This document shows positions 8,428 through 35,683 of a stretch of DNA of 35,683 nucleotides, piece by piece; the first letter of the stretch is position 1; each line of letters begins with the position of its first letter. The position numbers and the translations under genes are program-made. The DNA comes from Planctomycetota bacterium. GTDB taxonomy: Bacteria > Planctomycetota > Phycisphaerae > WQYP01. Location: the NCBI GenBank assembly GCA_021831565.1, contig JAKBMM010000031.1:1-35683 (forward strand), given 5' to 3'. Below the pieces are notes generated by a model. It was not told where the DNA came from. It ran no database searches and saw only the letters and a program-made list of their open reading frames with translations.

Positions 8428-8494
8428 AATCATATGGCAGTCAGCTTTGTATCATGGTATCCTATCACGTACTGGTTTGCAGGGACACAACTTT

Positions 8495-9451
8495 ATGGGC
8501 AATTCGTTGCAATTGATGAATCGATCCAGCCTGAGCAGCCATCCAAAACCAGCACGCATTTCCATCCCACCACGAATCACAGCGTTACAAGCAAAAAAGC
8601 TTATCCCCTTCGGTTGGTATGGGGGGAAGTTTTCGCACATGGACTGGTTGATGCCATTGCTGCCCCGATGTCACCATTATTGCGAACCGTTCGCCGGTTC
8701 AGGTGCCGTTTTATTAAACCGCCGCCCTTCAGCTATCGAGACATACAACGACATCGACGGCGAGGTGTGCAATTTTTTCCGTGTTCTGCGGGACCAGAAA
8801 AACGAATTGATTGAAGTCATCGCCTTGACACCCTTTTCTCGCGAAGAATTCGCCCTGGCATGCCAACTGGATCCTATACTGTCACCATTGGAACGAGCAC
8901 GCCGGTTCTATGTTCGCGCCCGCCAGGTACGCACGGGACTAGCCCAGACCGCTACCATCGGCCGATGGGCCAATTGCAAAAATACCAGCCGTAGCGGCAT
9001 GAGCGGAGTGATCAGCCGGTGGTTGGGCGGCGTTGAGATGTTGCCGGAAATTGCCAGCCGCCTGCTACGTATTCAAATTGAGAATCGTCCAGCTACTGAT
9101 GTAATTCGCCTGTATGACTCACCTGAGACACTGTTTTACTGCGATCCTCCGTATATTCACACTACCCGTGGAGATTCCAACGCATACGGTTACGAAATGA
9201 CCGATGACCAGCACCGCGAGTTAGCCTGTGTGCTCAATGCTGCGCAAGGCATGGTCGCTGTTTCAAATTATCCATGTTCATTGATGGACAAATTGTATCC
9301 CGCAGGCAAATGGTGGAAAACGCTGGGGCCGCTTAAGACCAATCACGCCACCAAGGGCTTACGCCGTGAAGCTCTCTGGACAAATTATGATCCTCGAAAA
9401 ATACGCGAAGGGCGGTCCGAATCAAATGGACACCTTTTCCAAGATACTTAA
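8495..9451 (+). CDS. D12-class DNA N6-adenine methyltransferase of a SacI-type RM system
   Basis: Transfers a methyl group from S-adenosylmethionine to N6 of adenine in a specific DNA site. In the 318-residue product the D12 signatures are FGWYGGK (39-45), the SAM motif PFAGSG (65-70) and the catalytic DPPY (217-220). Start choice: ATG 8495 has AGGG at 8481-8484 about 10 nt upstream; a TTG at 8447 would add 16 unconvincing residues and ATG 8516 is also possible. Its 3' end overlaps the endonuclease gene (start 9426) by 26 nt, which indicates a coupled RM operon. The reading frame is intact although the partner nuclease is broken, so it may act as an orphan methyltransferase. Base composition is visibly less GC-rich than neighbouring genes, consistent with transfer. 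The recognition site is inferred only from the SacI-like partner. Confidence 0.9.
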   Translation: MGNSLQLMNRSSLSSHPKPARISIPPRITALQAKKLIPFGWYGGKFSHMDWLMPLLPRCHHYCEPFAGSGAVLLNRRPSAIETYNDIDGEVCNFFRVLRDQKNELIEVIALTPFSREEFALACQLDPILSPLERARRFYVRARQVRTGLAQTATIGRWANCKNTSRSGMSGVISRWLGGVEMLPEIASRLLRIQIENRPATDVIRLYDSPETLFYCDPPYIHTTRGDSNAYGYEMTDDQHRELACVLNAAQGMVAVSNYPCSLMDKLYPAGKWWKTLGPLKTNHATKGLRREALWTNYDPRKIREGRSESNGHLFQDT

Positions 9452-9985
9452 CGATTCATACCGGCGTGTCTTGAGACGGGGAAACAAATCGTTTGTCTCC
9501 GATGCCAGCATTCGCCAACGGGTGGAGACTGTGGTGTTATGTTTGCGCAACCGTGCAGGCGTTCGCGCCTTGCTTGCCGGACTGCTGGCCAAAATTCAAT
9601 CGCCCGCAGTGGATATTCGCAAACCATATACCGACATTGCAGGCGCGACCGGTGGCGACTGCTACTCCGGGCGATTTTATGATGAACGTTATGTTCAGCG
9701 CCTTGCCGATTCGCCATATAGATTTCCGATCAACGCAACGACCGCATTTCTTACGCCCGGTTTTCGCACCAAAAACATCGTCCTGACAATGGATATCAAT
9801 CTGGAAGGTCGTCCTGCCGAGATGTACAAGGCATTGCTGGAACTCTTTGACTCCATCCAGAACAACCGCGTCACTGCTACCACGGTCATGGACGAATCAA
9901 TGCGATTGCTGGTCATTGAGCGCGACCAGCGCCAAGCCAGCATAGAAAAACTTGTCCGCGACATCAACCGCACCGCAGATCAACT

Positions 9986-9993
9986 GCCGCTAT
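9986..9993. repeat. Target-site duplication, left copy
   Basis: GCCGCTAT immediately before the left end of the inserted element; the identical octamer is at 10188-10195 immediately after its right end. Confidence 0.9.
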
Positions 9994-10187
9994 GGGCCTG
10001 TGACAGTTTCTGCAAAAGTGGCGTAATCAGCAAAAAAACGCCACTTTTTGCTTTGCAGAGCACTTTTTTTGTGATTTTTATGCCCCATAAACTTCAGATT
10101 CCACATTATTTCTTTGATTTTAAGCGATTTTTGGCCCGTGAACGGTTACCCCCAAACTTATCCGGTTGCAGAAACTGTCACAGGCCC
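9994..10187. mobile_element. 194-bp non-autonomous element (MITE) inside the SacI-type gene
   Basis: The ends are perfect 20-bp inverted repeats: GGGCCTGTGACAGTTTCTGC at 9994-10013 and its reverse complement at 10168-10187, flanked by the 8-bp duplication GCCGCTAT. No transposase is encoded. Just inside the left end is a second palindrome, 10012-10024 against 10038-10051, followed by T-rich sequence, which could terminate transcription on the plus strand. Near the right end CGTGAACGGTT (10137-10147) matches the edge of the unrelated intergenic repeat at 10816-10962. The terminal repeat matches 19 of 20 bases of the insertion-sequence end at 35559-35578. The 8-bp duplication fits several families (for example IS256, ISL3, IS1595), so no family is assigned. 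Confidence 0.92.
10012..10055 (+). terminator. Hairpin with T-run inside the inserted element
   Basis: GCAAAAGTGGCGT (10012-10024) pairs with ACGCCACTTTTTGC (10038-10051), one T bulged, across a 13-nt loop; a run of T lies at the 3' side of the core stem GTGGCGT/ACGCCAC. This resembles an intrinsic terminator on the plus strand and would further reduce expression of the 3' half of the endonuclease gene. Confidence 0.5.
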
Positions 10188-10195
10188 GCCGCTAT
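10188..10195. repeat. Target-site duplication, right copy
   Basis: GCCGCTAT, identical to 9986-9993, directly abutting the right inverted repeat of the element. Confidence 0.9.
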
Positions 10196-10815
10196 CGGCC
10201 GAAGAAATTGCCGGTCTGATAAGTCAGCACCTTGCATGTAAAAACGCTTCACGGTTGCCGGTACTGGTTGTCGCCGCGGCATATCAGGCGGCATCCAAAC
10301 GGCTGGGTGAAAAACCGCAACCACTACATGCGCATACCGCCGCCGACAAACAAACGGGCTCCATGGGCGACGTGGAAATAACTTTGATCAACGATAACAA
10401 TGTATTGACCGTGTATGAAATGAAACTCAAGGCTGTGACCATTAGTGACATCAACTTGGCCTTGGAAAAACTTAAAAGGCACACCGCCACCATACGCAAC
10501 TATATTTTTATTACCACCGAACCGATATCCCCCGAAGTGCTCCAATACGCTGCAGAAAAATACGATCAACTTGGTGGCACCGAAATAGCCATTCTGGATT
10601 GTCTCGGTTTTTTACGCCATTTTTTACACTTGTTCCATGGGCTACGAACTGATTTTATCAACGCCTACCAGAACCTGTTGTTAGCCGAGCCGGAAAGCGC
10701 AGTCAGCCAGGCACTCAAGGAGGCTTTTCTAACACTCCGAAAGGCGGCGGAAGGGAGCCTGTAGGTTTGGCGCTACTGTGTGGTATCCGTTTACTCACAG
10801 ATACATCGGAAGTAG

Positions 10816-35458: not shown

Positions 35459-35558
35459 GAGCGGGGGCGCGGGGACACAGTGCGAGAAAGAAAATAGGTA
35501 ACCATTTTACCCGCCGCCGCGGATAGTTGTTGTCCTTGCCGCGGATTACATTGTTCGC
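35459..35558. other. Short gap before the insertion-sequence end
   Basis: One hundred bases without a gene; GGTAA/TTACC forms a small hairpin near 35499-35513 and GCCGCGGAT appears twice. The last eight bases, TTGTTCGC (35551-35558), directly abut the insertion-sequence end and are the predicted left copy of its target duplication. Confidence 0.5.
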
Positions 35559-35683
35559 GGGCCTGTGACAGTTTATGCAGCTTTTTTTCGTATCTTGGCC
35601 AAAACGTAAGCTGGGCGGTTGGCCCACAGCCGTTCCCAGCGGGCATCCTGGCTTTTCCACGCCGCCCGTAATGCGAGAATGGC
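35559..35683. mobile_element. End of an insertion sequence, cut by the window edge
   Basis: 35559-35578 reads GGGCCTGTGACAGTTTATGC, identical in 19 of 20 bases to the inverted repeat of the 194-bp element at 9994-10187 and in the orientation of a left end, so the element continues rightwards out of the window. An open minus-strand frame runs from the window edge to a stop inside the terminal repeat, as expected for a compact transposase gene. This is probably an autonomous relative that could supply transposase to the shorter element. Confidence 0.65.
35573..35683 (-). CDS. Possible transposase, C-terminal 36 residues only
   Basis: A frame open from the window edge to TAA at 35573-35575, which lies inside the terminal inverted repeat. 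The visible tail is Trp/Arg/Lys-rich, with ALRAAWKSQDARWERLW, and ends IRKKAA. I cannot assign a transposase family from so short a piece; the call rests on position inside an insertion-sequence end. In a GC-rich genome 36 open codons alone would not be significant. Confidence 0.4.
   Translation of the reverse strand, partial: AILALRAAWKSQDARWERLWANRPAYVLAKIRKKAA

What the first reader, a model, noticed from the sequence alone, without database searches (positions are those of the whole stretch)
35559..35683. Right-edge insertion sequence shares its terminus with the 194-bp element
The end at 35559-35578 matches 19 of 20 bases of the element's inverted repeat, and a minus-strand frame ends inside it. 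This pairs a non-autonomous element with a probable autonomous relative 25 kb apart. A prediction follows: the octamer TTGTTCGC (35551-35558) should occur again just after the other end, which should read close to GCAGAAACTGTCACAGGCCC.
Basis: partly seen in the sequence, partly recalled or inferred. Interest (0 to 1): 0.72.

Follow-up and report, generated by a model that had tools for sequence, protein, structure and literature searches.

The report
ISKra4-type insertion sequence with slippage hairpin
The window ends inside a multi-copy bacterial jumping gene whose ends it shares with a short non-coding passenger element, and relatives of this jumping gene carry their transposase in two pieces that seem to be joined by a deliberate RNA polymerase slip at a TTTTTCCCCC run.

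Summary
35559-35683 is the transposase-3' end of an insertion sequence (IS). It matches 19/20 bases of the inverted repeat of the 194-bp element (9994-10187), and a minus-strand frame stops inside the repeat. Four left/right contig pairs share 8-9-bp target duplications. The TTGTTCGC partner contig is not in the bin.

Full copies in related Planctomycetota genomes (1541-1596 bp) identify an ISKra4-family (Mutator-like) IS. In every relative where the junction is readable, the transposase is split into orfA (zinc ribbon) and orfB (catalytic), one base out of frame (net +1), at an invariant TTTTTCCCCC preceded by a GC-rich hairpin. This differs from the -1 frameshift of the ISMich2 group. It matches the hairpin-driven T5C5 transcriptional slippage reported for a Roseiflexus IS630 element. 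I infer slippage makes the transposase; this is untested, and the window's own junction is not assembled.

The 194-bp element is a chimera: ISKra4-type termini around a truncated IS66-linked MITE. It splits an ORF beside a Dam-type methyltransferase gene.

The parts
35559..35683 (-). Left (transposase-3') end of an ISKra4-family insertion sequence, 125 bp, cut by the contig end
   Evidence: The same 113-126 bp lie at five other contig ends of the same genome; full homologues L072, L076, L088
35559..35578 (+). Terminal inverted repeat GGGCCTGTGACAGTTTATGC
35573..35683 (-). Last 36 codons and stop of transposase orfB; the stop lies inside the terminal repeat
35551..35558 (+). Presumed target duplication TTGTTCGC (8 bp; could be 9); second copy not in the assembly
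35502..35558 (+). Target: a short genomic repeat also present, uninterrupted, on contigs C8 and C12 (91-93% identical over 55-57 bp)
9994..10187 (.). 194-bp non-autonomous element with perfect 22-bp terminal repeats, five identical complete copies and three cut copies in the genome
9986..9993 (+). 8-bp target duplication GCCGCTAT, left copy
10188..10195 (+). 8-bp target duplication GCCGCTAT, right copy
10150..10187 (-). 38-bp arm derived from the right (transposase-5') end of an ISKra4-type IS; closest to the IS on L196 (G008)
10012..10149 (-). 138 of 152 bp of another MITE family (ends GTAACCGTTCACGGGC, 8-bp duplications), which also stands alone on contigs C79, C37, C23 and C32
9994..10011 (+). 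18-bp second terminus, an inverted copy of the right-end repeat, joined through TTGC microhomology

Best explanation
The window's right edge enters a multi-copy autonomous insertion sequence of the ISKra4 family (Mutator-like DDE transposases). It has GGGCCTGTGACAGTTT ends and inserts with 8-9-bp target duplications. The same transposase activity most likely also moves the 194-bp passenger element. Judging from its relatives, the element is about 1.54 kb and its transposase is split into orfA (123 aa, zinc ribbon, probably the DNA-binding half and possibly a regulator on its own) and orfB (catalytic half), which lies one base further (net +1). The junction is an invariant TTTTTCCCCC run 1-2 nt downstream of a GC-rich hairpin. 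Most likely RNA polymerase, pushed by the nascent hairpin, drops one base at the run in a fraction of transcripts, and normal translation of those transcripts gives the full transposase. Shown: the ends, the target duplications, the copy number, the homology, the split and its conserved frame, the invariant T5C5 run, and the presence of the hairpin. Inferred: that recoding happens, that it is transcriptional rather than ribosomal, that the window's own copy has the same junction, and cross-mobilisation of the 194-bp element.
For: Identity: NCBIfam ISKra4 matches orfB of L072 at 1.6e-49. Fusing orfA and orfB across the junction extends the match to profile positions 16-420 of 422 and raises it from 169.1 to 191.3 bits; the L092 fusion scores 206.6, over the 205-bit cut-off. 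Mobility: four contig pairs with matching 8-9-bp duplications against about 0.001 expected by chance; full copy L088 with the duplication TCCGTGCGC. Split: orfA ends and orfB begins one base apart in all ten homology-found loci, down to 35-43% protein identity, and in L216-L219. T5C5 is invariant although TCT is only 6% of Ser codons in these genes. Hairpin: folded upstream in all loci, -6.6 to -12.3 kcal/mol; a hairpin this long at this place has P 0.013-0.19 per sequence when codons are redrawn synonymously. Precedent: in a Roseiflexus IS630 element T5C5 slippage loses one C, needs a 5'-adjacent hairpin, and makes the transposase (PMC5009743).
Against: No transcript or protein data. The window's own IS interior is not assembled. 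Base-pair covariation is weak: one pair with changes on both sides, not above shuffles. Part of the hairpin is forced by the encoded peptide RCRSCGRS. In L216-L218 the hairpin sits in a register shifted by one base. The U run and the C run also allow +1 or -2 ribosomal slippage with re-pairing (reasoned from the sequence).
Confidence: 0.68

Rival explanations
1. Same IS, but the two frames are joined by programmed ribosomal frameshifting (+1 with tRNA-Phe on UUU-U or tRNA-Pro on CCC-U/G, or -2 on CCCCC), not by RNA polymerase slippage.
For: The run TCT TTT TCC CCC allows perfect re-pairing for +1 on UUU-U and -2 on the C run (sequence). Many IS families use ribosomal frameshifting, mostly -1 (PMC5009743).
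Against: The whole T5C5 run plus a hairpin immediately upstream, where it would act in the RNA exit channel, is the arrangement reported for transcriptional slippage; frameshift-stimulating RNA structures are described mostly as lying 3' of the shift site. +1 in IS elements is unusual.
Confidence: 0.25
2. The split is ordinary decay: orfA and orfB are a pseudogene frameshift and the elements are dead or mobilised in trans.
For: Many partial and decayed copies exist in the family; the ISKra4 model cut-off is reached only by the L092 fusion.
Against: The same one-base offset at the same T5C5 run is found in ten loci of several deep lineages, both halves show third-position-biased change, and copies with matching target duplications indicate recent transposition.
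Confidence: 0.04
3. The right-edge repeat is a second 194-bp-type non-autonomous element or a solitary end, not an autonomous IS.
For: Only 125 bp are visible in the window.
Against: It carries 36 codons of an ISKra4-type transposase C-terminus with the stop in the repeat; nine contig ends carry the opposite end with a ribosome-binding site and orfA start.
Confidence: 0.03

Closest known systems
ISKra4 family, p-MULT 4 of the Mutator-related transposases (Guerillot et al. 2014, PMC3942029)
   Same: Transposase homology across the whole profile, terminal inverted repeats, 8-9-bp target duplications, family known in Planctomycetes
   Different: The transposase sits in two ORFs with a net +1 offset at T5C5, after the zinc ribbon; on my tree the T5C5 elements form their own supported clade
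ISMich2 group of the same family
   Same: Two ORFs, recoding needed for a full transposase
   Different: ISMich2 needs a -1 shift (PMC3942029). ISOni1 and a Microcystis copy were checked here: -1, after about 69 codons without a zinc ribbon
Roseiflexus IS630-family element with T5C5 transcriptional slippage (reviewed in PMC5009743)
   Same: TTTTTCCCCC run, hairpin with a 4-nt loop directly 5' of it, loss of one base restores the transposase
   Different: Unrelated transposase family; experimental proof exists there and not here; stem 5-7 bp here, ending 1-2 nt from the run
MITEs (miniature inverted-repeat elements) derived from IS ends
   Same: Short, non-coding, perfect repeats, target duplications, multi-copy identical
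   Different: Interior is a truncated MITE of a second, IS66-linked family, so the unit is a chimera of two element families

Membership tests
ISKra4 family | Transposase matches the ISKra4 family model | tested here: met
   NF033572 at 1.6e-49 for orfB of L072; fusion of L092 206.6 bits against cut-off 205, fusion of L072 191.3, just under. For the window copy only 36 codons are visible, 94% identical to L072
ISKra4 family | Terminal inverted repeats and short direct repeats (8-9 bp, GGG ends; figures from memory of ISfinder) | tested here: met
   GGGCCTGTGACAGTTT at both ends; duplications of 8, 9, 9, 9 bp in this genome and 9 bp in L088
ISMich2 group | Two ORFs with -1 frameshift | tested here: not met
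   Two ORFs but net +1 in all loci; the T5C5 clade is separate from ISOni1 and the Microcystis copy, though long branches make deeper placement unsure
ISKra4 group in the narrow sense | Insertion upstream of sigma-A promoters in many members | not tested
   Too few insertion sites with both flanks, promoters in this phylum not modelled
Roseiflexus IS630-type programmed transcriptional slippage (mechanism) | T5C5 run with one-base loss needed for the fused product | tested here: met
   Ten homology-found loci; not visible in the window copy
Roseiflexus IS630-type programmed transcriptional slippage (mechanism) | Hairpin directly 5' of the run | tested here: met
   Hairpin in all loci; moderate statistical support, weak covariation
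Roseiflexus IS630-type programmed transcriptional slippage (mechanism) | Edited (U5C4) transcripts | not testable with these tools
   Needs RNA
IS66-linked MITE (interior of the 194-bp element) | GTAACCGTTCACGGGC ends also bound an IS66 transposase gene | tested here: inconclusive
   One such end lies about 130 bp beyond the 3' end of an IS66 transposase match on C16; the opposite end was not traced

The most novel reading that the evidence does not exclude
A clade of Mutator-type (ISKra4) insertion sequences in Planctomycetota has independently adopted hairpin-stimulated T5C5 transcriptional slippage, known so far (in the papers I could search) from one IS630 element, to ration its transposase. 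This would make T5C5 plus hairpin a recurrent regulatory cassette across unrelated transposon families.
Probability: 0.6. Interest if true: 0.6.

Novelty: new variant of a known kind. Interest (0 to 1): 0.5.

Why it matters
If right, an unusual way of controlling a transposase, RNA polymerase slippage driven by a nascent hairpin, is used by two unrelated transposon families. That gives a sequence signature (hairpin + T5C5 + net +1 offset) to search for and several natural variants to test. It also shows how a passenger element arises: ends of one transposon family closing around a truncated MITE of another, then multiplying to at least five identical copies.

Tried and rejected
Pfam has no model for the transposase. 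A first class-wide pattern had a miscounted gap and found nothing, not even known loci; it is no evidence, and the corrected pattern is the one used. Because that pattern requires T5C5, its hits do not count towards T5C5 invariance; only the homology-found loci do. One hit, L215, has no transposase homology and is taken as chance. Six viral-contig hits of the same motif show no significant transposase match. The idea that this is an ISMich2-group element was rejected on the sign of the shift. The idea that the 194-bp element is a simple internal deletion of the resident IS was rejected: its arm matches L196 better and its core is a separate MITE.

Full report
Observation. The repeat at 35559-35578 matches the terminal repeat of the 194-bp element in 19 of 20 bases; the window has only these three sites and shuffled sequence has none. 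On the minus strand a frame runs in from the contig end and stops inside the repeat: AILALRAAWKSQDARWERLWANRPAYVLAKIRKKAA*.

Why the window stops here. The window is contig C4 of an 86-contig genome of 2.8 Mb. Five more contigs (C9, C21, C51, C64, C65) end with the same 113-126 bp, and nine contigs (C2, C13, C25, C33, C45, C60, C67, C77, C84) end with the opposite terminus GGGCCTGTGACAGTTTCTGT... followed by a ribosome-binding site and the start of a gene, ATGCCCGCGACAACC. So the assembly collapsed a repeat in at least 11 places (four pairs, two unpaired left ends, five unpaired right ends). Pairing the flanks gives CTCTATGC (C65/C13), GTTGAACTG (C64/C33), GAGGGGTAT (C51/C45) and ATCATAACG (C9/C60): 8-9-bp target duplications, about 0.001 expected by chance. 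The partner of C4, which should begin TTGTTCGC, is not in the bin. The target is a short genomic repeat present uninterrupted on C8 and C12, which predicts how the missing flank should continue.

Identity. Half of the 28 genomes of the family carry a similar left end. Complete copies: L072 (1541 bp), L076 (1541 bp, no duplication) and L088 (1596 bp, duplication TCCGTGCGC). They come from Planctomycetota metagenome-assembled genomes. Pfam has no match; NCBIfam gives the ISKra4 family. Own-genome C-termini are 94% identical to L072 over 36 residues. The ISKra4 family is p-MULT 4 of the prokaryotic Mutator-like transposases (PMC3942029).

Split transposase. In the complete copies the gene is two ORFs: orfA, 123 aa, ending ...CRSCGRSFSPSGS*, and orfB, starting ...PPQDRDWGLP. 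In all ten loci found by homology that hold the junction (L072, L076, L088, L092, L112, L114, L125, L126, L129, L147) orfB lies exactly one base downstream of the orfA frame, at TCTTTTTCCCCC. Orthologous identity falls to 35% in orfA and 43% in orfB, so this is old and maintained; differences fall mostly at third codon positions. A corrected pattern search added L216, L217 (= L092), L218 from another family of the class, and L219, with the same offset. Fusing the halves restores one continuous match to the ISKra4 profile, 16-420 of 422, with a higher score. Related single-ORF transposases such as L093 and L133 have the zinc ribbon and the following FPxx/HPxx segment in one frame. The ISMich2 group is reported with a -1 shift, and two cyanobacterial copies examined here (ISOni1 and a Microcystis plasmid copy) are indeed -1, at a different place. 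On a tree the T5C5 elements form one supported clade apart from these, though deep branches are long.

How the halves may be joined. A review (PMC5009743) describes an IS630 element of Roseiflexus in which RNA polymerase loses one C at TTTTTCCCCC, only when a hairpin GCGGGCgcaaGCCCGC forms directly upstream; normal translation of the shortened RNA makes the transposase. The present junction has the same run, needs the same one-base loss, and has a hairpin (for example GCCGGTC-ATGT-GGCCGGT) ending 1-2 nt before the run in every locus. Because the peptide there partly forces pairing, I redrew synonymous codons: a hairpin this long at this place has P 0.013-0.19 per sequence; total folding energy is less distinctive. 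Formal covariation is weak. T5C5 itself is far better supported: TCT is 6% and CCC 17% of their codon families in these genes, yet invariant. I put transcriptional slippage at about 0.68 and ribosomal +1/-2 shifting at about 0.25. The window's own copy is not assembled through the junction, so this part is inferred for it.

The 194-bp element. Five identical complete copies and three cut copies lie in this genome, with 8-9-bp duplications. It is a chimera: a 38-bp arm nearly identical to the right end of the IS on L196 (G008), 138 of 152 bp of a second MITE family with ends GTAACCGTTCACGGGC, and an 18-bp inverted copy of the arm's terminus joined at TTGC. The second family stands alone on C79, C37, C23 and C32, with 8-bp duplications in some, and recurs across the bacterial family; in L147 a member sits inside an ISKra4-type orfB. 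One of its ends lies next to an IS66 transposase gene. The shared 20-bp termini make cross-mobilisation by the resident IS plausible but not shown.

Verdict. An IS end and its related MITE are ordinary. The surprising part is the conserved hairpin-T5C5 junction in an ISKra4-type IS, a new variant of a known kind. I cannot exclude that it has been noted in papers or ISfinder entries that I could not search.

Noticed in passing
window 9366-10764: The 194-bp element splits an open reading frame directly downstream of a Dam-type adenine methyltransferase gene (8447-9451). The flanks read on in one frame when one duplication copy is set aside, and the downstream part has a GDVEI...YEMK stretch like a PD-(D/E)XK nuclease, so it may be a broken restriction endonuclease gene; no family model confirms this.
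   Followed up: partly
window 10012-10149; loci L040, L041, L042, L044, L057, L190, L199: A second MITE family of about 152 bp (ends GTAACCGTTCACGGGC, 8-bp duplications) is widespread in this bacterial family, with more than 20 matches in G025.
   Followed up: partly
L147:1744-1895: A 152-bp MITE of the second family with duplication TCGGATGG sits inside orfB of an ISKra4-type element, a likely first step towards the chimeric 194-bp element.
   Followed up: no
G000:C8, C12, C4:35502-35558: A short genomic repeat (CCGCCGCCGCGGACAGTTGTTGTCCTTGCCGCGGATTGCATGTTCGCC...) with internal inverted repeats occurs intact on C8 and C12 and is the target of the window's IS insertion.
   Followed up: partly
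L026 (G000:C32:55752), L062 (G000:C53:39510): Two degenerate solitary ends of the same IS inside contigs, apparently old remnants.
   Followed up: no
G000:C62:39126 and G000:C25:26221: A 194-bp element and an IS copy on different contigs both abut the 9-mer GGCGGGGCG, perhaps a target preference.
   Followed up: no
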